Positions 12,391 through 35,605 of a stretch of 45,997 bases of DNA are shown piece by piece. Positions within the stretch are counted from its first letter, which is position 1; every line of letters starts with the position of its first letter. The translations under genes were made by a program, and so were the position numbers. The notes under the pieces were generated by a model. It did no database searches. It was not told the DNA's origin and saw only the letters and a program-made list of their open reading frames with translations. This DNA comes from Myxococcaceae bacterium (GTDB taxonomy: Bacteria > Myxococcota > Myxococcia > Myxococcales > Myxococcaceae), in the NCBI GenBank assembly GCA_016926755.1, contig JAFGNZ010000058.1, forward strand, positions 1-45,997, read 5' to 3'.

Positions 12391-12452
12391 TCTACGACAA
12401 GAATCGTAGACATCTACGACAAACGTCGTTGACATCTACGATGATCGTCGTA
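12391..12452 (+). promoter_or_regulatory. Three phased operator dyads, probable BlaI-type repressor sites
   Basis: Three copies of a TCTACGA-N6-TCGTAGA dyad start at 12391, 12413 and 12435, exactly 22 bp apart (two helical turns). The first is perfect (TCTACGA / TCGTAGA); the second right arm is TCGTTGA and the third TCGTAAT. They end 11 bp before the BlaI-family start codon. BlaI/MecI repressors bind similar TACxAC-type dyads, so this is most likely the autoregulatory operator of the pair. Confidence 0.8.
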
Positions 12453-20456: not shown

Positions 20457-25781
<5,325 letters not shown>

Positions 25782-26003
25782 CTGTCAGGTTGGATCCCAG
25801 AGGGAACCACAGCTCGCCTGGCAGGCGTCCGGACCGGCCCGGCGCTGGCCCGCGCCACCCCCGGAATGATCCGAAGAATTGCCTGGCAGACGGGCGCCGG
25901 GTTCTTTGCCATACTGCTCTCGGAGTGAGGTTTCCCCCCTGAGGAGTCATCCCGAGGTCGGACGCCCTGTACGGGTGCGTCATAATTTTCCGGCATCCTG
26001 CTA

Positions 26004-26030
26004 TTGACTCGCCCCCACCTGACTTATAAG
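26004..26030 (+). promoter_or_regulatory. Candidate housekeeping promoter for the RiPP operon
   Basis: TTGACT at 26004-26009 and TATAAG at 26025-26030 resemble -35 and -10 elements with a short 15-base spacer. The rest of the 313-base gap (25782-26094) is noticeably less GC-rich than its surroundings and holds no gene I can support; it is a shared upstream region of the divergent UvrA and PqqD genes. Confidence 0.45.
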
Positions 26031-26064
26031 ACTAATCGCATTGAGTAGATCTATCCCGTTTCCC

Positions 26065-26080
26065 TTCGAGTGAACTCGAA
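26065..26080. promoter_or_regulatory. Perfect 7-bp inverted repeat, possible operator
   Basis: TTCGAGT (26065-26071) and ACTCGAA (26074-26080) form a perfect inverted repeat with a 2-base spacer. It lies between the candidate promoter and the PqqD-like start, where a repressor site or a small RNA hairpin would control the whole operon. Confidence 0.45.
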
Positions 26081-26094
26081 AGCTGGCGGAGTAC

Positions 26095-26430
26095 ATGAGC
26101 GACTTCGTAGAGCCGACTCAGCAGTCTGCCCATGAAGCGGAAGCCCAGAAGGCGCTGCCCCCTGTCCTCGAGGGAGTCATCCTCCAGCGACAGGGCGAGG
26201 CGTGCTTCGTCATGGACACGAACAATGGAGAGGTCTTCTCCGTCAACCCGACCGCGGCGCGCATCTTCGAAGGGTGCCAGCAGCGCGAGACGGTGAGCGC
26301 GGTCGTCAATGCGCTGATCACCGCGGCAGGTGCACGAGAGAATGAGCACGCGGCGGTGCAAGCGGATGTGCTGCGGCTCGTAAAGGAGCTTCAGGAGCTG
26401 GGACTCTGCGAGCCTGCCGGGGCGCACTAA
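26095..26430 (+). CDS. PqqD-like RiPP recognition element protein
   Basis: The 111-residue protein has the PqqD winged-helix pattern: VILQRQGEACFVMDTNNGEV followed by FSVNPTAARIFEGCQ (the 'N.TA..I...' core) and a C-terminal helix with VLRLVKELQELGLCEP. PqqD-type proteins bind the leader or recognition segment of a precursor peptide and deliver it to modifying enzymes. It is the first gene of the putative RiPP operon, with GGAG just before the ATG. Most stand-alone PqqD proteins work with a radical SAM enzyme; none is encoded here, so its client may be the DUF692 enzyme, the methyltransferase or the protease. Confidence 0.85.
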   Translation: MSDFVEPTQQSAHEAEAQKALPPVLEGVILQRQGEACFVMDTNNGEVFSVNPTAARIFEGCQQRETVSAVVNALITAAGARENEHAAVQADVLRLVKELQELGLCEPAGAH

Positions 26431-26499
26431 GAGGACCAGCCTGTTTCGTGAGCCTGTACTCCACCCTGGCGAGTGCCCGGGTGGGCAGGTCTCCAAAGT

Positions 26500-26552
26500 G
26501 TGTGCCCATGAAGGGCATACTGTGCCGTCCGCTTGGGACGTGCCGTTCCAAG
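26500..26552 (+). promoter_or_regulatory. Structured leader before the precursor gene
   Basis: Two short hairpins lie in the 154-base gap before the precursor: bases 26500-26507 with 26513-26520 (core TGCCC/GGGCA) and 26532-26538 with 26546-26552 (CTTGGGA/TTCCAAG, one G-U pair). They could stabilise a separately abundant precursor message or mark a second promoter region. Weak evidence; no promoter hexamers stand out. Confidence 0.3.
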
Positions 26553-26584
26553 TGCCGGCTTCACCCCTAGCAGTCGAGGATCTC

Positions 26585-27130
26585 ATGTACAACAAGCCCC
26601 AGATCGCCCGCGTTGCCGCCACCACCGACAAGTGCACCTGCAGCAACGGCATGGTCGTTGTCTTGGCAGCGGAGATCAAGCGCGTGTCGGCCACCACCGA
26701 CAAGTGCACCTGCAGCAACGGCATGGGCGTCGTCGTGGCGGCGGAGATCTCCCGCGTGTCGGCCACCACCGACAAGTGCACCTGCAGCAACGGCATGGTC
26801 GTCATCGCCAACGCGGAGATCAAGCGCGTGTCGGCCACCACCGACAAGTGCACCTGCAGCGGCGGCATGGGCCCCGTCATCGTTTCGGCGCCGGAGATCA
26901 AGCGCGTGTCGGCCACCACCGACAAGTGCACCTGCAGCAACGGCATGGTCATCATCGCCAACGCCGAGATCAAGCGCGTGTCGGCCACCACCGACAAGTG
27001 CACCTGCAGCAACGGCATGGTCGCCACCCGCGAGGTAGCGGCCATCACCCGCCTGTCTCCCACCACCGACAAGTGCACCTGCAGCGGCGGCATGGGCCCG
27101 GTCCTCGCCGAGGCCACGACGGCCCAGTAG
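26585..27130 (+). CDS. Seven-repeat multi-core RiPP precursor (TTDKCTCSxGM)
   Basis: The 181-residue product consists of a 7-residue start (MYNKPQI) and seven repeats of about 24 residues. Each carries RVSATTDKCTCS(N/G)GM followed by a variable aliphatic stretch and (A/P)EIKR. All 14 Cys of the protein lie in the seven Cys-Thr-Cys motifs. Repeats 1, 2, 3, 5 and 6 end SNGM; repeats 4 and 7 end SGGMGPV. There is no signal peptide and no conventional leader. The ATG at 26585 has GAGGA four bases before it; the frame is open back to a GTG at 26498 without a ribosome binding site, which would add 29 residues. The neighbouring MNIO, partner, PqqD and methyltransferase genes make a Cys-modified peptide the best reading. 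A repetitive metal-binding protein is the alternative. Confidence 0.85.
   Translation: MYNKPQIARVAATTDKCTCSNGMVVVLAAEIKRVSATTDKCTCSNGMGVVVAAEISRVSATTDKCTCSNGMVVIANAEIKRVSATTDKCTCSGGMGPVIVSAPEIKRVSATTDKCTCSNGMVIIANAEIKRVSATTDKCTCSNGMVATREVAAITRLSPTTDKCTCSGGMGPVLAEATTAQ
26609..27112 (+). repeat. Seven in-frame direct repeats within the precursor gene
   Basis: The TTDKCTC-coding segment starts at 26621, 26693, 26765, 26837, 26915, 26987 and 27062, giving periods of 72, 72, 72, 78, 72 and 75 bases, all multiples of three. The core ACCACCGACAAGTGCACCTG is identical at the DNA level in all copies, so the array arose by recent duplication or is kept uniform by recombination. Collapse or expansion of the array in an assembly is possible. 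Confidence 0.95.
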
Positions 27131-27149
27131 TTCGCTGAAGTAGGCAAGG

Positions 27150-27181
27150 GGGGATGGCTCTCGGGCCGTCCCCTCGTTTTA
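27150..27181 (+). terminator. Intrinsic terminator/attenuator after the precursor
   Basis: GGGGATGGC (27150-27158) pairs with GCCGTCCCC (27165-27173), 9 bp with one G-U pair and a 6-base loop, followed by TCGTTTTA. It lies 20 bases after the precursor stop and 31 bases before the next gene of the same operon. Partial termination here would give more precursor than enzyme message, as is common for RiPP operons. Confidence 0.8.
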
Positions 27182-27211
27182 TGATGCGACAGCCTCCCGG
27201 CCAGCCCGATC

Positions 27212-27823
27212 GTGTCTTCCCCTGCCTCCCGCCTCCTGCTCTTCACGCTCGCGGACTCCGCGGGTGGCGCCTTCTTCCGGCCGCTCTCGCTGAAGCTCTC
27301 CGTGCAGCCCGGGACGGGGCAGCTCTGGCTGGATCCGGCGAATGAGAATGCCTACTCGCCCACCTGGCAGCAGGCCGCGCGGAACGTGGCCGCGGTGGGA
27401 AGGCGCAGGTATGAGCTGCCGTGGGAGACGACGGATCTGCACATCTCCCCTCAGGGCCGCAAGCTGCTGCTGGATGGACGGAGCGCCTCCCTGCCGCTCT
27501 TCGTGGCCTGGGTAGCGCTGCTCATGGGCCGGCCCCTGCCCGTGCCCTTCCTGGCCACCGGCGTGGTGTTCGAGGGTCAGGAGACCCTGGCCGCGGCCCC
27601 CCGCGACTACATCCAAGGCAAGCTCGGAGTGGCGGACGCCTATGTCCGCCAGGTGTACCCCAGCGCGGGGCGCGTCCCCATGTGGGTTCCCGAGGGCTCG
27701 GAGTATGATCCGGGAGTGTCCAGCGTCCTCGAGATCCGCCCCGTGGTCAGCCTGACCCAGGCAGTGGAACAGATCCTGGGGCTGGCGCCGCGGCCGCTCA
27801 GCGGTTCGGGAGTGGAGCGATGA
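27212..27823 (+). CDS. Stand-alone Lon-type (S16) serine protease domain
   Basis: The 203-residue protein looks like an isolated proteolytic domain of Lon. TTDLHISPQGRKLLLDGRSAS aligns with the Lon segment DIHIHVPEGATPKDGPSAG, placing the nucleophile at Ser91. VALLMGRPLP, ATGVV and the following GKLGVADAYV (Lys137) align with Lon LTGRPVR, TGEI and the catalytic-Lys helix. Ser-Lys spacing is 46 residues (43 in E. coli Lon). There is no AAA+ ATPase domain. The start is a GTG with no clear ribosome binding site, just after the attenuator; the end overlaps the MFS gene by 4 bp. In this context it is a good candidate for cutting the multi-core precursor. DGRSAS deviates from the usual DGPSAG, so activity needs proof; a binding-only relic is the alternative. 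Confidence 0.7.
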   Translation: MSSPASRLLLFTLADSAGGAFFRPLSLKLSVQPGTGQLWLDPANENAYSPTWQQAARNVAAVGRRRYELPWETTDLHISPQGRKLLLDGRSASLPLFVAWVALLMGRPLPVPFLATGVVFEGQETLAAAPRDYIQGKLGVADAYVRQVYPSAGRVPMWVPEGSEYDPGVSSVLEIRPVVSLTQAVEQILGLAPRPLSGSGVER

Positions 27824-29112
27824 TCCGCCAGGGCGTGAGCGCCCTCCGGGAGATGTACGCCCTGACGCGAGGCGTGGGCAACCTGCGCGTGCTGATGCTG
27901 TCCAACCTGGTGGGCACGCTGGCGGCGGGGCTGCTCAACCCGGTGCTGCCGCTGTTCCTGAACGCTCGAGGGCTGAGCCTGCAGGACATTGGCTTCACCT
28001 ACACCCTGGGCTCGCTGCTGCCCATCTTCGTGCAGCCCATGCTGGGGGCGTGGTCGGACCGCTACGGGCGCACGCGCTTCATCATCTGGACCTCGCTGGC
28101 CACCTCGCTGCTGGTGCCCGTGATGGCGCTGATCCACAGCGCCGTGCCGCTGGCGGTGGCCATCTGCCTCAAGCTGCTGCTGGTGCGCAGCGCCGCCCCC
28201 GTCACCCTGGCGCTGGTGGCGGACAGCGCACCGCCGGAGCGGCGCGCCACGGGCTTCGCGCTGCTCGACAGCGCCGCCAACTTCATGTTCGTGGCGGCCC
28301 TCGTCGCCTCGTCGCTGACGATGCGCTGGCTGTCCACCGAGCAGATCTTCTTCCTCGCGGGTGCGCTCTTCCTGGCCTCCAGCGGGATGCTCTTCGGGCT
28401 GAAGGATGTGGGCCAGCCCAAGCCCGCCGCCGCGCCCGGGGCCTCGCGGCCCGCCTGGAGCCTGGCGCTCGCGGGCCTGGCGGCGCCCTTCGCCTACGTG
28501 CGCCGCAACCCCTCCCTGGCGGGCCTCTTCATCTTCCAGTTCTTCTTCACCTTCGGGCTCAACCTCTACCCCATCTACATCCCGCTCTACGCCACCCGGC
28601 TGGGGGCGCCTCCCGAGCTGATCGGCCCGCTGGTGGCGGCCTCGTGGCTCGTCTTCGCCTTCGTCCAGCCGGTGGGCGGACGGCTGGCGGATCGGCTCCC
28701 CCAGCGTGGCGGCCTCATCATGGCCGGCCTGGGCGGCATGACGGCGATCAGCCTGGCGCTGGGCAGCGCGGGGTGGCTGCCTGCCCCCTATGGGCTGGTC
28801 GTCATGGTGCTGATGTGGGCGCTGCTGGCGGTGCCGGATGGGCTCTTCCGCCCCGCGCTCACGACCCTGCAGGTGGAGGTGGCGCCCGCCCAGGAGCGGG
28901 GCCGCTTCATGGGCGCGCTGGGCTCCTGCGTGGCGCTGGCCCAGGTGCTGGCGCCCGTCAGCTACGGCTTCGTCGCGCAGCGGCTCTCCCTGGGCGCGGC
29001 CTTCCTCCTGTCCTCCACCTCCTTCCTCCTGGCGCTCGCGTGCATGTCGCGAGTGCCGGCTATCATCACCACCCCCGCTGTCCCCTTACCCACCACTTCG
29101 GAACCTGGATGA
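27820..29112 (+). CDS. MFS transporter (putative RiPP exporter)
   Basis: The 430-residue protein has the 12-helix MFS layout with the loop 2-3 motif GAWSDRYGRTRF and a similar element (GGRLADRLPQRG) in the second half. It would export the product using the proton gradient or take up a substrate. It overlaps the protease gene and the downstream barrel gene by 4 bp each, so it is firmly in the operon. The AGTGGAGCG before the ATG is a good ribosome binding site. Export of modified peptide or self-protection is inferred from context; the substrate cannot be read from sequence. Confidence 0.88.
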   Translation: MIRQGVSALREMYALTRGVGNLRVLMLSNLVGTLAAGLLNPVLPLFLNARGLSLQDIGFTYTLGSLLPIFVQPMLGAWSDRYGRTRFIIWTSLATSLLVPVMALIHSAVPLAVAICLKLLLVRSAAPVTLALVADSAPPERRATGFALLDSAANFMFVAALVASSLTMRWLSTEQIFFLAGALFLASSGMLFGLKDVGQPKPAAAPGASRPAWSLALAGLAAPFAYVRRNPSLAGLFIFQFFFTFGLNLYPIYIPLYATRLGAPPELIGPLVAASWLVFAFVQPVGGRLADRLPQRGGLIMAGLGGMTAISLALGSAGWLPAPYGLVVMVLMWALLAVPDGLFRPALTTLQVEVAPAQERGRFMGALGSCVALAQVLAPVSYGFVAQRLSLGAAFLLSSTSFLLALACMSRVPAIITTPAVPLPTTSEPG

Positions 29113-31208
29113 GCCCTCACGTACGCACCCTCTCCTGGACCGCTGCCCTGCTGGCGATCTGCCTGCCCGGCCTGGGCCGCGCGGATTCAGAGTACTCGGT
29201 CAAGGCCACCCGCACGCGCGATGCCATCACCATCGACGGCAAGCTGGACGAGGCGGCCTGGCAGAGCGCGCCGGAGATCTCCGGCTGGCACCTGACGCGC
29301 ATCGACTACGGCAAGCCCGTGGAGGACGACACGCGCGTGCGCATCCTCTATGACGAGGACAACCTCTACTTCGCGTTCCACTGCCTGGACTCGAAGGCGG
29401 AGCTCGTCACCGGCTACACGGTGCAGAACGAGGGCTTCCTCCACCAGGAGGACAACATCACCGTCATCCTCGACACCTTCCTGGATCACCGCAACGCCTA
29501 CTACTTCTGGACGAACCCGCTGGGCGTGCGCACCGACGGGCGCATCGTGGACGACGGCGAGGCCTTCTCCACCAACTGGGCCGGCGAGTGGGAGACACAA
29601 TCCACCATCGTCAAGGATGGGTGGATCGCCGAGGTGCGCATCCCCTTCGCCAACTTCCAGTTCCCCGAGGGCACCCAGGAGCTCACCTTCGGGATGCTGC
29701 TGGACCGGGAGCAGGCGCGTAACCAGAAGTGGAGCAACTGGACGCCGGATGGCGTCAACTCCGCCAAGGTGTCGCGCTACCCGCACCTGACGGGCCTGGA
29801 GGGCGTCCGCGGCCGGCCGAAGTGGAGCATCACGCCCTACGTGGCCACCCAGTTCGCGCTCAAGGCGAATGACGACCGCGGCTTCTTCCGCCCCAACGTG
29901 GGCGCGGACGCCCAGATCGATCCGGTGCCCTCCGTGTCGTTGAAGCTGACGGCCAACCCGGACTTCTCACACGTGGAGGCGGACCAGGACTTCCTGCTGC
30001 TGGACACGGAGGAGCCCCTGCTGCCCGAGCGGCGCCCCTTCTTCCTGGAGAGCGAGCACCTCTTCATCTCCCCCATCAACATGTTCACCTCGCGCCGCAT
30101 CGCGCTGAAGCCCCATGATCGGATCTGGGGCGGCGCGCAGCTCACCGGCAAGGTGGGCGGGCTGGCCTTCGCGCTGCTGGACGTGCAGCACCGGGACGAG
30201 GCGTGGGACCAGACGTACGAGAACGTGAACTCGGGCGTCCTGCGGCTCCAGCAGGATCTGGGCAAGCGCTCCGCCATCAGCCTCACCCTCCTGAGCCGCA
30301 AGGGGGACGAGTGGTTCCGCACGGTGGGCGTGGACGCCAATATCCACCTCTACGAGGAGTTCTTCATCCAGGCGCAGGCCGCCAAGACCTGGAGCCCGCT
30401 CGGGAGGCACGGCTCGGAGGCCTACCACGTGGCCCTGCACCGCTTCGACACGCTGTCGGAGTTCTGGATCGAGTTGGAGGACATCGGGAAGAACTACGCC
30501 AACCCGCTGGGCTGGACGCCGGTGACCGACAAGCAGGGGTGGAACACGCACCTGTACCTCAACCCCTTCCCCCAGTGGCGCTTCCTGCCGCGGCTGGACG
30601 TGACGTGGGACACGCTCTGGCGGCGCAACCACGAGCATGAGCGCACGCGCTACCGGCAGCGGCTCAACGTGCAGCCCTACCTGCACCACAACTTCGCGCT
30701 CTACTTCGACGGCGTCTACGACCAGAACGAGGGCTTCGACAACCGGCTCATCAAGGCTGGCTTCACCGTCTTCCCGCATGACTGGCAGAACTTCACGCTC
30801 ACGGCGGTGACGGGCCGCTTCCTGGGCGGCGACATCCGCGGGTTCAACAGCGCGCTCAACCTCAAGCTGGGCTCTCGCATCGTGGCCCGCTTGAGCGGCT
30901 TCTACACGCGCAACGTGGGCGTGCCGCCCGAGAGCGATCTGTTCGGCGAGTCCGGGGATGGCTACTCGTGGTCCGGCTACGCCCAGCTGCGCTACCACTT
31001 CAGCCCGGATCTCTACGCCCGCGTCACCTTCCAGAAGGGCGGCGTGTCGGAGCTGGCGGACTACAACAGCGTCAAGGGCACCTTCCTCGACGCGGTGGTC
31101 GGCTGGCACTACCGCCAGTGGAGTGACATCTTCCTCGTCTACACGGACCAGCCTTTCGACGGCGCCCAGGAGCGCCGGATCCTCTCCAAGATCTCCTTCA
31201 ACTACTGA
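29109..31208 (+). CDS. CBM9-like / DUF5916 outer-membrane beta-barrel protein
   Basis: The 699-residue protein has a signal peptide (LLAICLPGLGRA), an N-terminal CBM9/DOMON-like beta-sandwich (about 25-220: ITIDGKLDEAAWQSA, VRILYDEDNLYFAFHC), and a DUF5916-type region with many aromatic-rich amphipathic strands ending in SKISFNY, typical of an outer-membrane barrel with a terminal aromatic residue. LLPERRPFFLESEHLF is a recognisable family segment. Function of the family is not established; some members are linked to carbohydrate or small-molecule handling. Its ATG overlaps the MFS stop by 4 bp, so a joint role with the inner-membrane transporter in moving the product or its metal-loaded form across the outer membrane is plausible. 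Confidence 0.8.
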   Translation: MSPHVRTLSWTAALLAICLPGLGRADSEYSVKATRTRDAITIDGKLDEAAWQSAPEISGWHLTRIDYGKPVEDDTRVRILYDEDNLYFAFHCLDSKAELVTGYTVQNEGFLHQEDNITVILDTFLDHRNAYYFWTNPLGVRTDGRIVDDGEAFSTNWAGEWETQSTIVKDGWIAEVRIPFANFQFPEGTQELTFGMLLDREQARNQKWSNWTPDGVNSAKVSRYPHLTGLEGVRGRPKWSITPYVATQFALKANDDRGFFRPNVGADAQIDPVPSVSLKLTANPDFSHVEADQDFLLLDTEEPLLPERRPFFLESEHLFISPINMFTSRRIALKPHDRIWGGAQLTGKVGGLAFALLDVQHRDEAWDQTYENVNSGVLRLQQDLGKRSAISLTLLSRKGDEWFRTVGVDANIHLYEEFFIQAQAAKTWSPLGRHGSEAYHVALHRFDTLSEFWIELEDIGKNYANPLGWTPVTDKQGWNTHLYLNPFPQWRFLPRLDVTWDTLWRRNHEHERTRYRQRLNVQPYLHHNFALYFDGVYDQNEGFDNRLIKAGFTVFPHDWQNFTLTAVTGRFLGGDIRGFNSALNLKLGSRIVARLSGFYTRNVGVPPESDLFGESGDGYSWSGYAQLRYHFSPDLYARVTFQKGGVSELADYNSVKGTFLDAVVGWHYRQWSDIFLVYTDQPFDGAQERRILSKISFNY

Positions 31209-31213
31209 GCGCC

Positions 31214-32041
31214 ATGACCACGCCCGACGTCACCTCCCTGCGTAGCCGCTATGACGAGGTGTCCCCGAAGTACGACAAGGGGACGCCCACCCAGCTGTCC
31301 CACCGGCTGTTCTGGCTGGCGTACGAGCACCTCACCTGGAGCGCGGTGGAGAAGGTGCTGCCTCCCGCGGGCCAGGTCTGGCGCGTGCTCGACGCGGGCG
31401 GCGGTGGAGGCAAGTTCGGCACCCGCTTCGCCGAGCGGGGCCATCACGTCACGGTGCTGGATGTGTCTCCCGGCATGCTGGAGCAGGCGCGCGGCGAGTT
31501 CTCCCAGAAGGGGCTGCTGGAGCGGGCCAGCTTCGTGGAGGGCAGCGTCACGGCGCTCGCCTTCCCGGACGCCACGTTCGATCTCGTCTTCTGTGAGGGG
31601 GATCCGGTCTCCTACTGCATGGACGAGTACCCCAAGGCCATCTCGGAGCTGGTGCGCGTGGCGAAGCCGCGCGGCCCCGTGGTGATGGGGCTGGACAACC
31701 GCTACGAGGCCTTCGTGGGCACCCTCAAGTACGGCAAGAAGGAGGAGGCGCTGAAGGTCCTGCTCGACGGCAAGACGAAGTGCCCCTATGGGCTGCCCGT
31801 CCACGCCTTCACCCTGCGCGAGCTGCATCAGGCCGTGGCCGCGGCGGGGGCCGAGGTGGAGGAGATCTTCGGCAAGCCCGTCATGTTCTTCGACATGCTG
31901 GAGGCGTTCCAGGCCGCCCGGGGGCCCAACGTCGATCTCTGGGAGGCGCGCGGGGAGCTCCTCGCCCTGCAGGAGCGCCTGGCCCACGAGGGCTTCGCCG
32001 TCACCGGCCAGCACCTGCAGGTCATGGCTCGGCGAAAGTGA
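31214..32041 (+). CDS. Class I SAM-dependent methyltransferase
   Basis: The 275-residue protein has the SAM-binding fold: motif I WRVLDAGGGGGKFGTRFAE (57-75), an acidic post-I VTVLDVS segment, and FDLVFCEGDPVSY at motif II. It most resembles the Methyltransf_11/25 small-molecule or peptide group. A 4-12 residue N-terminal YDEVSPKYDKG is also typical. It lies 5 bp after the barrel gene and 7 bp before the MNIO gene. In this operon it may methylate a thiol, nitrogen or carboxylate generated by the MNIO. The target atom is not deducible. Confidence 0.88.
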   Translation: MTTPDVTSLRSRYDEVSPKYDKGTPTQLSHRLFWLAYEHLTWSAVEKVLPPAGQVWRVLDAGGGGGKFGTRFAERGHHVTVLDVSPGMLEQARGEFSQKGLLERASFVEGSVTALAFPDATFDLVFCEGDPVSYCMDEYPKAISELVRVAKPRGPVVMGLDNRYEAFVGTLKYGKKEEALKVLLDGKTKCPYGLPVHAFTLRELHQAVAAAGAEVEEIFGKPVMFFDMLEAFQAARGPNVDLWEARGELLALQERLAHEGFAVTGQHLQVMARRK

Positions 32042-32048
32042 GGGACAC

Positions 32049-32882
32049 GTGAGCTCGCTTCCATACCTGGGTGTGGGGCTCAGCTACCGCTGGGATCTCA
32101 ACCCGCACCTGGCTCGCGGCAACCCCGGGGTGGACTGGCTGGAGGTGACGCCGGAGCACTTCCTGCCGCTCACGGAGGACGCGCTCCAGCGGCTGGCGCT
32201 GCTGGCGCGGCGCTACCCGCTGGCGGGCCATGGCCTGGAGCTGTCCGTGGGCTCGGATGGGGTGGATGCCCCCGGCTACATGGAGGGCGTGCGCCGCATC
32301 CTCAGCACCACCAAGAGCGCCTGGCACGGCGATCACCTCTGCTTCACGCGGGTGGGGACGCTGCCCCTGCGCGCGCTCACGCCCGTGCCCCTCACGGAGG
32401 AGGCGCTGGAGGTGTGCGTGCGCAACATCCGCCGCGTCCAGGCGGAGCTGGCCGTCCCCTTCGTGGTGGAGAACATCGCCTACCTCTTCGAGACGCCCCT
32501 GGACACGCTGCCGGAGGAGGAGTTCCTGCGGCGCGTGGTGACGGAGGCGGACTGCGGGCTGCTGCTGGATCTCCACAACCTGCACGCCAACGCCGTCAAC
32601 CGCCGGTACGATCCGTACCCGTTCCTGGATCGGCTGCCGCTGGAGCGGGTGGTGCAGATCCACATCGCCGGCGGCCGGACGATGGAGGGGCTGCTGCTGG
32701 ACAGCCACTCCTCGTGCTCGCCCAAGGAGGTGTTCGAGCTGCTGGATTACGTCGTCCCTCGCTGCCCCGTCCGCGGGGTGAACTTCGAGATGGACTCGGA
32801 CTTTCCCCCCTTCCCCCGGCTGGTGGAGGAGCTGGCGCACGCGCGCTCCATCCTCCAGCGCCACGGGGCCTCCAAGAGCTGA
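32049..32882 (+). CDS. DUF692 multinuclear non-heme iron oxidase (MNIO)
   Basis: The 277-residue protein is a DUF692 (MbnB/TglH/ChrH-type) TIM-barrel oxidase. The metal-ligand pattern is present: GHGLELSVGS (His61), GDHLCF (Asp95, His96), VENIAYL (Glu141, Asn142), LLLDLHNLHANAVN (Asp174), QIHIAGG (His205), DSHSS (Asp218, His220) and NFEMDSDFPPF (Glu247). Family members use two or three irons and O2 to rearrange Cys, and sometimes Asn or Asp, in precursor peptides, yielding oxazolones, thiooxazoles, thiomorpholines and similar groups. The GTG start has GAGGG just upstream. The adjacent partner gene and a Cys-rich precursor in the same operon make it the key modifying enzyme. Length is normal for the family. 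Confidence 0.92.
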   Translation: MSSLPYLGVGLSYRWDLNPHLARGNPGVDWLEVTPEHFLPLTEDALQRLALLARRYPLAGHGLELSVGSDGVDAPGYMEGVRRILSTTKSAWHGDHLCFTRVGTLPLRALTPVPLTEEALEVCVRNIRRVQAELAVPFVVENIAYLFETPLDTLPEEEFLRRVVTEADCGLLLDLHNLHANAVNRRYDPYPFLDRLPLERVVQIHIAGGRTMEGLLLDSHSSCSPKEVFELLDYVVPRCPVRGVNFEMDSDFPPFPRLVEELAHARSILQRHGASKS

Positions 32883-32895
32883 GAGAGGAGCGGAC

Positions 32896-33486
32896 GTGGG
32901 TTACTCGGAGACACTCGAAGTGCTGGCGCGGCTCCACGTGGATCCGCGCTTCCGCGCGGCCTACCTGGCCGATCCACGCGCGGCCCTCACCGCTCGGACA
33001 CTGACGGAGGCCGAGCAGGAGCGCCTGGCCCGCATCGAGCCCCGCGCCGTGCAGCTGGCGGGGCGGATGATGGACTACCACCGGTCCGCGCGCGTCCTGG
33101 AGCAGCTCACCTGGGTCAACCCCGAGCTGCGCCCGGAGCTGCGCGGGGTGATGAACCGGTTCATGGAAGGAGTCCTGCCGGAGCTGCTCAACCGCGAGGA
33201 GGCCATCACCTTCTGCCGCTTCCTGGAGGCGCAGCCGCAAGGGCTGCCCGACTACGTGGCCGAGCTGGCTCGGTGCGAGCGGCTGCGCATCGCGCTGGCC
33301 TGGGGGCTGGAGCCGGGAGCGGGCCCCACGCACGTGGAGACCTTCCAGTACCCGGTGCTGGAGGTGCTCGCGGCGATGGCGGCTCCAGGCTGGCCGAAGC
33401 CCACGCCGCGCGCGACGCGGGTCATCTACACCAAGGTGCCGAGCCTGCCGGCCGTGATGCTCCGGGCCGAGCCCGTGGCTCCCTGA
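32896..33486 (+). CDS. MNIO partner protein (MbnC/TglI-like, leader-binding)
   Basis: The 196-residue protein begins with a helical domain (YSETLEVLARLHVDPRFRAA, then YLADPRAAL) often seen in DUF692 partner proteins, followed by a domain with LNREEAITFCRFLEAQPQG and a VETFQYPVLEVLAAM strand. DUF692 oxidases nearly always need an adjacent partner that binds the precursor through a winged-helix recognition fold; the position 13 bp after the MNIO gene, with AGGAG before the GTG start, fits. Sequence identity to known partners is too low for me to assign a named subfamily. Confidence 0.72.
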   Translation: MGYSETLEVLARLHVDPRFRAAYLADPRAALTARTLTEAEQERLARIEPRAVQLAGRMMDYHRSARVLEQLTWVNPELRPELRGVMNRFMEGVLPELLNREEAITFCRFLEAQPQGLPDYVAELARCERLRIALAWGLEPGAGPTHVETFQYPVLEVLAAMAAPGWPKPTPRATRVIYTKVPSLPAVMLRAEPVAP

Positions 33487-34822: not shown

Positions 34823-35605
34823 CTAGCGCCCCCGGGGCGCGTCGAGGAAGGTGCCGAGCAGCACCCAGCGGCGCGCGGCGTCCTCGGCGCCGGGCCGGGC
34901 CACCAGCGGCGTGGTGTAGTGCCAGAAGGGCAGCCGGTACACGGTGACGCCTCCCAGGGTGTTCACGCTGGCGATCTCCGAGAAGTGGCCGCCCCGCGCA
35001 TAGACGAGCCACTGGTGCGCGACAGCCGGCGTGGCGAGGGTGATGTGCATGTCCACGTACCCGTCCCGCGCCTCGGGATCCTCGGGGTGATGATCATTGT
35101 GCGGTCCGGTGTAGTCGCCGGGCCCGTAGCACAGCACCTGGATGCCCCACCGGCGCCGCAGCGCGCGACCGCTCACCGCGGCGGCGAAGGCCCCGAAGCT
35201 CTCCGAGCGCAGCAGGGTGGTGAGCCCCAGCCGCTCGGCCACGCGCCACGAGCGTGAGCGCCGGCTCCCCAGCAGCGCGGTGCGCACGCGCACCGTCTTG
35301 GGCAGCAGCTCCGAGTAGTTCTCCGTCATCCCCAGCAGGCTCTCCGGCGGGATGGGATCCTCCATCACCGTGAGCGTGCCGCGCAGCTCCTCCTCGAGCG
35401 CGTCCCGGCACGCCGCGGCCTTCCTCACGTCAATGACGCCGGTGAGGGAGAGGAAGCGCCGGGGTGGCACCCGGAGCAGCGCCCCACAGGCCTCTGGATC
35501 TCGTCCTCGGAGGATCCGGAGGCCCTTGAGGGTCAGCAGGTCGGCGAACTCGGAGGGAAACAAGGGCATGCAACTTCCACCGAGGGTGGCAGATAATGGT
35601 CCCAT
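34823..35605 (-). CDS. 2OG-Fe(II) oxygenase-like protein
   Basis: The 260-residue protein has an oxygenase-like iron site in its C-terminal half: YGPGDYTGPHNDHH gives His169-x-Asp171, LPFWHYTTPL the distal His229, and RRWVLLGTF an Arg at 245/246 positioned to bind 2-oxoglutarate. The N-terminal half is not recognised. Related proteins hydroxylate or halogenate diverse substrates; this one is too distant to name. The ATG at 35605 has GGGGAGAG five bases upstream; ATG 35569 is an alternative. It is followed 10 bp later by the M18 gene, so they are probably co-transcribed. Confidence 0.6.
   Translation of the reverse strand: MGPLSATLGGSCMPLFPSEFADLLTLKGLRILRGRDPEACGALLRVPPRRFLSLTGVIDVRKAAACRDALEEELRGTLTVMEDPIPPESLLGMTENYSELLPKTVRVRTALLGSRRSRSWRVAERLGLTTLLRSESFGAFAAAVSGRALRRRWGIQVLCYGPGDYTGPHNDHHPEDPEARDGYVDMHITLATPAVAHQWLVYARGGHFSEIASVNTLGGVTVYRLPFWHYTTPLVARPGAEDAARRWVLLGTFLDAPRGR

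What the first reader, a model, noticed from the sequence alone, without database searches (positions are those of the whole stretch)
26095..33486. Candidate new RiPP operon: seven-core Cys-Thr-Cys precursor with MNIO, partner, PqqD, Lon-like protease, methyltransferase and two-membrane transport
Eight consecutive plus-strand genes (4-bp overlaps or short gaps from 27212 onward) encode a recognition protein, a repetitive Cys-containing precursor, a protease domain, an exporter, an outer-membrane barrel, a methyltransferase, a DUF692 oxidase and its partner. DUF692 enzymes with a partner are known to modify Cys in peptides (methanobactin, 3-thiaglutamate, chryseobasin-type systems). The multi-core precursor without a leader together with a solitary Lon-like protease is not an arrangement I know to be described. 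The model: iron-dependent oxidation of each CTC motif, methylation, cutting between repeats, export.
Basis: partly seen in the sequence, partly recalled or inferred. Interest (0 to 1): 0.93.

Follow-up and report, generated by a model that had tools for sequence, protein, structure and literature searches.

The report
Seven-in-one peptide factory in myxobacteria
A myxobacterial operon encodes seven copies of a small Cys-Thr-Cys peptide fused into one protein, whereas the same operon in three other genera encodes it as separate tiny genes, together with a DUF692-family enzyme, a partner-like protein and a lone Lon-like domain that are predicted to modify and cut the peptide, likely into metal-binding products that would then be exported.

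Summary

Not supported: 'multi-core precursor without a leader'. In the 21 relatives the precursors are 82 separate 30-36 aa genes (2-9 per operon), each with its own start and stop. Each has a conserved leader-like half (MYxx[ASP][EQ]IVRVxAxxD), a KC[TS]CxxxM motif and a variable tail ending in E or Q. Only in this genome are the units fused.

Best explanation: a new MNIO RiPP family, likely making several thio-heterocycle, Cu-binding peptides, trimmed by an ATPase-free Lon domain. Chemistry, cleavage, metal and export are inferred. The papers listed in eight searches of the held library do not describe it. New variant of a known kind; interesting, not categorically new.

The parts
26095..26430 (+). 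PqqD-family protein (111 aa), likely the discrete recognition element for the leader-like half of each unit
   Evidence: Pfam PF05402 E 8.4e-12, 45.7 bits, cut-off 23.4; found upstream of the precursors in the window and in all 21 relative loci
26585..27130 (+). Precursor: seven fused units, each IxR[VL]xxTTD-KCTCS[NG]GM-tail; only unit 1 keeps the MY... start and only unit 7 the ...AQ end of the free peptides of relatives
   Evidence: start preceded by GAGGA; no Pfam or NCBIfam family over its cut-off
27146..27177 (+). GC-rich hairpin followed by T-rich bases between precursor and Lon-like gene; likely attenuator that gives more precursor than enzyme
   Evidence: Terminator-like site at 27148-27175, one of 2 in the scanned stretch against 0.7 (sd 0.8) in shuffles; 13-15 pairs (G-T and one mismatch allowed) at the same place in 17 of 22 loci, only 6-9 pairs in the 5 Myxococcus/Pyxidicoccus loci
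27212..27823 (+). Solitary Lon (S16) proteolytic-domain protein, 203 aa, no AAA+ domain; predicted maturation protease with Ser91/Lys137 dyad
27820..29112 (+). MFS transporter, likely inner-membrane exporter
   Evidence: PF07690 E 1e-38; conserved
29109..31208 (+). CBM9-like/DUF5916 protein with N-terminal signal-like segment (by eye); outer-membrane barrel is predicted, not shown
   Evidence: PF06452 8.4e-8 and PF19313 8.9e-7, both over cut-off; no solved relative by sequence; 69-78% identity to relatives
31214..32041 (+). Class I SAM methyltransferase, target unknown
   Evidence: PF13649 E 1.4e-21; best solved match 2avn E 1.2e-13
32049..32882 (+). MNIO (DUF692) enzyme; likely oxidises Cys of the KC[TS]C motif
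   Evidence: PF05114 257.8 bits; NCBIfam BufB 195.7 (cut-off 310), HvfB 188.4 (cut-off 360), ApyH 123, ChrH 63, MbnB 15 bits; solved relatives 3bww, TglH, MbnB in that order
32896..33486 (+). MNIO partner (PME-type-2-like), helical domain plus C-terminal alpha/beta domain

Best explanation
This operon encodes an MNIO-type RiPP pathway, predicted from its gene families, whose likely substrate is a 30-36 aa peptide, MYxx[ASP][EQ]IVRVxAxxD-KC[TS]CxxxM-tail, present as 2-9 separate genes in relatives and as seven fused units here, and it is predicted to turn each unit into a short sulfur-heterocycle peptide that likely binds copper. Inferred steps: PqqD and the TglI-like partner present the IxRVxxxxD half of a unit to the MNIO. 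The MNIO oxidises Cys in KC[TS]C, most likely to 5-thiooxazole, as its nearest characterised relatives (BufB/HvfB) do. The methyltransferase adds a methyl group. The ATPase-free Lon domain cuts the leader and, in this genome, between units, most simply at the ...AE|I junctions that recreate the E-ended tails of the free peptides. The MFS protein and the DUF5916 protein carry the products across the two membranes. Shown: gene content, order and conservation, unit anatomy, co-occurrence, and the fold matches of two models. Not shown: chemistry, cut sites, metal, transport and its direction.
For: Operon order is the same in 18 of 18 complete relative loci; three more are cut by contig ends, with the rest of the operon on other contigs. 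Co-occurrence: the precursor profile matches 22 of 195 phylum genomes; the Lon-like gene matches strongly in the same 22, with 7 further weak hits of 20-31 bits inside 563-929 aa frames, a size that fits full-length Lon but was not inspected; the partner is in the 22 plus 2. Precursors: 82 separate units in 21 loci, 72 distinct peptides, last residue E or Q in 82 of 82, a strict SD-like tetramer in 80 of 82. The counting rule itself demands MY, D, C, C and M; the looser rule (CxC[SGN] after an ATG) finds the same 82, all with Y2, R9, A12, D15 and M23, and the profile search finds 88 in the 21 relatives, 82 in the operons and 6 at second places. Fused form: tails VVVLAAE, GVVVAAE, VVIANAE, GPVIVSAPE, VIIANAE, VATREVAA, GPVLAEATTAQ, with E immediately before the next leader at 5 of 6 junctions. 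Lon fold and dyad. Partner. The window's MNIO scores highest with BufB and HvfB, and the best E-values over 19 members keep that order; the paper passages read link these enzymes to 5-thiooxazole and copper (PMC12668002; PMC13419390). The HvfB site-3 residues N175, D242 and H244 named there correspond, by my reading of the alignments, to invariant N177, D218 and H220.
Confidence: 0.62

Rival explanations
1. A metal-storage polypeptide rather than short products: the fused protein stays whole after MNIO modification and works like a modified metallothionein or long EGKCG captophorin, while the Lon-like domain is a non-cleaving scaffold or removes only the N-terminal part.
For: Long repeat captophorins exist and whether they are cut is stated to be unclear (PMC12668002 passages); RadA, ComM and BrxL are among the fold matches, and I recall that at least RadA and ComM Lon-type domains are not active proteases.
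Against: In 21 of 21 relatives the units are single short peptides, so polymer length is not needed; Ser91 and Lys137 are invariant in 22 of 22; transporter genes are conserved in the operon.
Confidence: 0.17
2. The MNIO performs another reaction on the CxC motif (oxazolone-thioamide, Cys excision, or crosslink as in methanobactin, TglH or ChrH), so the product is not a copper-type metallophore but for instance a signal or antibiotic.
For: The window's MNIO is below all equivalog cut-offs; the best partner match is TglI rather than the DUF2063-type 3dee; tails are very variable (72 distinct peptides among 82).
Against: Bit scores rank BufB and HvfB well above ApyH, ChrH and MbnB; CxC...M with constant Met is a plausible soft-metal site (inference).
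Confidence: 0.17
3. The small peptides are not MNIO substrates; they are unmodified metal-binding or regulatory peptides that sit in the operon.
For: In two Corallococcus genomes three divergent units with extra Cys lie on a second contig of about 8.9 kb where tblastn finds no other operon gene except a doubtful MFS-like match, E 0.007.
Against: Precursor, Lon-like gene, PqqD, MNIO and partner occur together; PqqD and partner are recognition-type proteins with no other obvious client.
Confidence: 0.04

Closest known systems
Captophorins / bufferins / oxazolins (BufABC, HvfABC, FonABC)
   Same: Nearest MNIO by NCBIfam score (BufB 196, HvfB 188 bits); Lys-Cys motif; several Cys sites per precursor; MNIO plus partner
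   Different: No EGKCG or DUF2282 precursor and no DUF2063 partner, no Sec signal by eye; adds PqqD, Lon-like domain, methyltransferase, MFS and DUF5916; MNIO below the equivalog cut-offs
TglHI (3-thiaglutamate) and other PME-type-2 MNIO systems
   Same: The partner model matches TglI over its whole length
   Different: MNIO only 105 bits to TglH as a profile, 151 to 3bww; precursor has an internal KCxC motif with a following tail; Lon-like domain and PqqD extra (TglA details recalled)
adjamnio-I precursors of Antoine et al. 2025 (PMC12452194; sections 13, 17 and 18 read)
   Same: Their table gives 122-293 residues, 8-21 Cys and a PME-type-2 partner; the fused ORF (181 aa, 14 Cys) falls in that range
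   Different: Order there is precursor-MNIO-PME; here four genes lie between precursor and MNIO. That survey collected ORFs that precede the MNIO gene, so this precursor would be missed. The free 30-36 aa units fall outside the range. Their alignments are in a supplement that could not be read
ATP-dependent Lon protease (S16)
   Same: Fold and Ser-Lys dyad of the proteolytic domain
   Different: No AAA+ or N-terminal domain; DGRSAS in place of DGPSAG; strong matches only in genomes with this operon (22 of 195)
ChrH/chryseobasin and DybH systems
   Same: MNIO family; myxobacterial members reported (PMC12636315 passages)
   Different: Only 63 bits to the ChrH model; CPACGMG motif absent; the enzyme is 277 aa, and the extra C-terminal domain described for ChrH does not fit in that length (inference)

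Membership tests
MNIO (DUF692, PF05114) | Profile match over curated cut-off | tested here: met
   257.8 bits, cut-off 25
MNIO (DUF692, PF05114) | Residues equivalent to HvfB N175, D242, H244 present | tested here: met
   N177, D218 and H220 invariant in 19 of 19; correspondence read by eye from the alignments to 3bww; HvfB numbers from PMC13419390 passages
Captophorin/bufferin | MNIO passes the BufB or HvfB equivalog cut-off | tested here: not met
   195.7 against 310 and 188.4 against 360 for the window's enzyme; the other 18 members match the models but their scores were not shown
Captophorin/bufferin | DUF2063 (PME-type 1) partner | tested here: not met
   No such Pfam match up to E 1 in 18 of 18 members
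Captophorin/bufferin | EGKCG-type or DUF2282 precursor with Sec signal | tested here: not met
   Units are MYxx..DKC[TS]C; no Pfam family over cut-off for the fused ORF; absence of a Sec signal judged by eye
Captophorin/bufferin | 5-thiooxazole product | not testable with these tools
   Needs mass spectrometry and NMR
PME-type-2 partner | TglI/NGO1945-like fold without DUF2063 signature, gene after MNIO | tested here: met
RiPP recognition element (PqqD) | PF05402 over cut-off | tested here: met
   45.7 against 23.4 bits
RiPP recognition element (PqqD) | Binds the leader of this precursor | not testable with these tools
   Needs a binding assay
Lon protease family S16 | Fold of the Lon proteolytic domain | tested here: met
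Lon protease family S16 | Catalytic Ser-Lys dyad | tested here: met
   S91 and K137 invariant in 22 of 22, aligned with DGPSAG Ser and GG[LI]KEK second Lys (which residues are catalytic is recalled)
Lon protease family S16 | Pfam Lon_C over cut-off | tested here: not met
   Only 2 of 22 members match up to E 1, best E 0.092
adjamnio-I | 122-293 aa, 8-21 Cys, PME-type-2 partner | tested here: inconclusive
   Fused ORF fits (181 aa, 14 Cys), the free units of relatives do not; the family alignment is in a supplement not readable here
Methanobactin (MbnB) | MbnB equivalog | tested here: not met
   14.7 bits against 325 for the window's enzyme
Chryseobasin (ChrH) | ChrH equivalog and CPACGMG-type motif | tested here: not met
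   63 bits against 600; motif absent from the 82 units and the fused ORF

The most novel reading that the evidence does not exclude
A myxobacterial RiPP class in which an ATPase-free Lon domain is the dedicated maturation protease, releasing from one operon a small library of up to nine thio-heterocycle, copper-binding peptides that share a core and differ in their tails; this genome has turned the gene array into a viral-style polyprotein, catching the step from many precursor genes to one multi-core precursor.
Probability: 0.42. Interest if true: 0.8.

Novelty: new variant of a known kind. Interest (0 to 1): 0.62.

Why it matters
MNIO enzymes are a large family (about 14,000 proteins in PMC12452194) with many substrates still unknown, and a survey that takes the ORF before the MNIO gene would pass over this precursor, because four genes lie between. 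Whether repeat-type MNIO precursors end as one polypeptide or as small peptides is stated to be unclear in a recent paper (PMC12668002, passages). Here the operon carries its own Lon-like candidate protease, and nature provides both forms (free units and a fused array), so that question becomes testable with one enzyme and two substrates. It would also give a Lon domain a biosynthetic role without an ATPase, and it shows how tandem peptide genes can become a multi-core precursor.

Tried and rejected
The protein-database search with the 181-aa precursor found nothing (3531 candidates, none at E 1e-3), probably because of composition correction; that is not evidence that no relatives exist (searches found them). 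Rejected: 'no leader'. Rejected: assembly artefact of the fusion, as six junctions would each need to lose stop, SD and start while staying in frame. Rejected: orphan repeat without function, given the conserved operon. Six frames in five loci with CxC but no ATG (again) were not counted as units, and one L035 unit can also be read with an 18-residue extension holding a further CxC, counted once. Sigma-70 promoter scan of 25780-27215 gave nothing. Solved relatives of the DUF5916 protein by sequence: none up to E 1. Solved relatives of the partner by sequence profile: none up to E 10. NCBIfam for four free units: no families. Half of the partners (9 of 18) match Pfam Frankia_peptide, best E 2.5e-6, in the N-terminal half, which agrees with the Os1348 fold match and was not taken further. 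In one search families not listed are not excluded.

Rows dropped: the L044 partner was left out of A2 because my extracted range ran past its own stop, so A2 holds the window and 17 of 18 loci; the three contig-broken loci (L017, L038, L039) have no MNIO or partner in A2/A3. A4 holds 17 units chosen by hand. One search had 3 of 59, one of them (G026) weak. One search counts 23 of 96, of which G102 is weak (E 7.6e-4) and not counted as a member; one search counts 29 of 195, of which 7 are weak; I did not inspect those 7. One search counts 24 of 195: G082 is a relic and G072 a contig that starts inside the MFS gene, both without precursor or Lon-like match; for G072 an assembly gap and a loss cannot be told apart.

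Changed on re-check: the genes between precursor and MNIO are four (I had written five), the uncounted frames six (I had written four), and one search was run because the counting rule partly forced the constant residues.
Full report
Observation. The precursor starts at 26585 (ATG after GAGGA) and runs to 27130: 181 aa, 14 Cys, seven DKCTC sites spaced 24, 24, 24, 26, 24, 25 aa. Tandem Repeats Finder sees the array with scores of 557-681. Families: PqqD, MFS, CBM9 plus DUF5916, methyltransferase and MbnB_TglH_ChrH are over Pfam cut-offs. The 27212 gene (P3 below) has no match at all, and the partner has only weak ones.

Relatives. The search with P3 in 96 genomes of the family gave 23 hits: 22 strong ones in four genera, the window's included, and one weak one. 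Of the 7 genomes of the window's genus searched, only the window's has the operon. In all 18 relative loci long enough, the seven searched genes stand in the same order. Three more loci are cut by contig ends, and the rest of their operons lies on other contigs.

The precursor in relatives. Between PqqD and P3 the 21 relative loci hold 82 separate small genes, 2-9 per locus, each 30-36 aa with its own ATG and stop; 80 of 82 have GGAG, GAGG or AGGA 4-16 nt upstream, and gaps are 26-300 nt (median 52). There are 72 distinct peptides. The rule demands MY, D, C, C and M, so their constancy there is partly built in; the looser rule (CxC[SGN] after an ATG) finds the same 82, and all of them have Y2, R9, A12, D15 and M23. 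The profile search finds 88 in the 21 relatives: these 82 and six at second places. K16 is present in 81 of 82; position 18 is T (46) or S (36). After M23 the tail varies but ends in E (63) or Q (19). So the window's repeat is a fusion of such units: unit 1 keeps the MY start, unit 7 the AQ end, and units 2-7 begin at the IxR[VL] of the leader-like half. At 5 of 6 junctions an E stands both as the last residue of a tail and as the residue before the leader Ile, as in the free peptides ([EQ]|I). The reading 'no leader' therefore falls; whether the first MY segment serves all seven units or each unit carries its own signal is open.

Co-occurrence. The precursor profile A4 matches 22 of 195 phylum genomes. 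The P3 profile matches 29 of 195, 22 strongly, the same 22. The partner matches 24 of 195: the 22, plus G072, whose contig begins inside the MFS gene, and G082, a single-contig genome with only pieces of methyltransferase, MNIO and partner left. If independent, a 22/22 overlap would have log10 p of -28.8, but the genomes are related, so this only says that the genes occur together. Nothing outside the phylum was searched by genome.

Regulation. A GC-rich hairpin followed by T-rich bases comes after the last precursor (27148-27175) and, with 13-15 pairs, in 17 of 22 loci; the five Myxococcus/Pyxidicoccus loci have only 6-9 pairs. This is likely an attenuator that keeps precursor in excess of enzymes.

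Mechanism. Commitment: recognition by PqqD and partner, Cys oxidation by the MNIO (5-thiooxazole most likely), methylation of an unknown group, cutting by the Lon-like domain, and export by MFS and DUF5916 proteins, giving short CxC...M peptides that likely bind copper. Only gene content, conservation, unit anatomy and predicted folds are shown; every chemical, proteolytic and transport step is inferred.

Literature. Eight searches of the held library (terms MNIO, DUF692, myxobacteria, Myxococcus, Corallococcus, RiPP, Lon protease, tandem repeat, core peptide, precursor peptide and others) listed no paper that, by title and start of abstract, describes this cluster. Lists were capped in four of them: 20 of 101, 20 of 193, 15 of 25, 12 of 34. 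Read: PMC12452194, outline, abstract, sections 13, 17, 18 and passages; its main text has no word beginning Myxococc or PqqD, and its supplement could not be read. PMC12668002: passages and section 12. PMC13419390: passages. PMC12636315 and PMC12710340: passages. PMC12224551: a term search with no hits for RiPP or DUF692. PMC12715929: one passage, which reports LonB/LonC-type Pfams over-represented near lanthipeptide clusters and points to the BREX defence system, with no mention of MNIO; that is the only Lon-RiPP link I saw and it is a different context. Subscription papers are not in the library, so print elsewhere cannot be excluded.

Verdict. A real, conserved and, as far as these searches show, undescribed MNIO RiPP family with its own Lon-like domain, in which this genome carries the odd fused form. 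New variant of a known kind; interest 0.62.

Noticed in passing
L094:6711-7139 (-) and L095:6689-7118 (-): Two Corallococcus genomes carry, on another contig of about 8.9 kb, three divergent units (35-39 aa) with extra Cys in the tail and at the C-terminus (e.g. ...TCNGLQEC), between a gene that by eye resembles a ZIP metal transporter and a short-chain dehydrogenase-like gene (both unverified); tblastn finds no MNIO on these contigs.
   Followed up: partly
L107:6730-7237 (-): A single-contig genome of the Corallococcus genus (G082) keeps only pieces of methyltransferase, MNIO and partner: a decayed operon without precursor or Lon-like match.
   Followed up: partly
L041 (minus strand), precursor region: Relative of the Citreicoccus genus with nine units, seven with the same tail and six of these identical peptides repeated with a 128-nt period, apparently a recent expansion.
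   Followed up: no
window 27146-27177: Terminator-like hairpin between precursor and Lon-like gene, with 13-15 pairs in 17 of 22 loci.
   Followed up: yes
G000 C142:9899-10684, C5:12705-13451, C314:33480-33866: Three further DUF692-family matches elsewhere in the own genome, one of 342 bits, so the organism may have other MNIO-type loci.
   Followed up: no
window 12391-12452: 22-bp unit TCTACGACAAACGTCGTAGACA repeated 2.8 times, itself partly palindromic.
   Followed up: no
window 34823-35605 (-): ORF that by eye resembles a 2-oxoglutarate/iron-type oxygenase, downstream and on the other strand; not part of the operon.
   Followed up: no
window 20457-25781 (-): 1774-aa ORF that by eye looks like a double-length UvrA-type excision protein upstream of the operon.
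   Followed up: no
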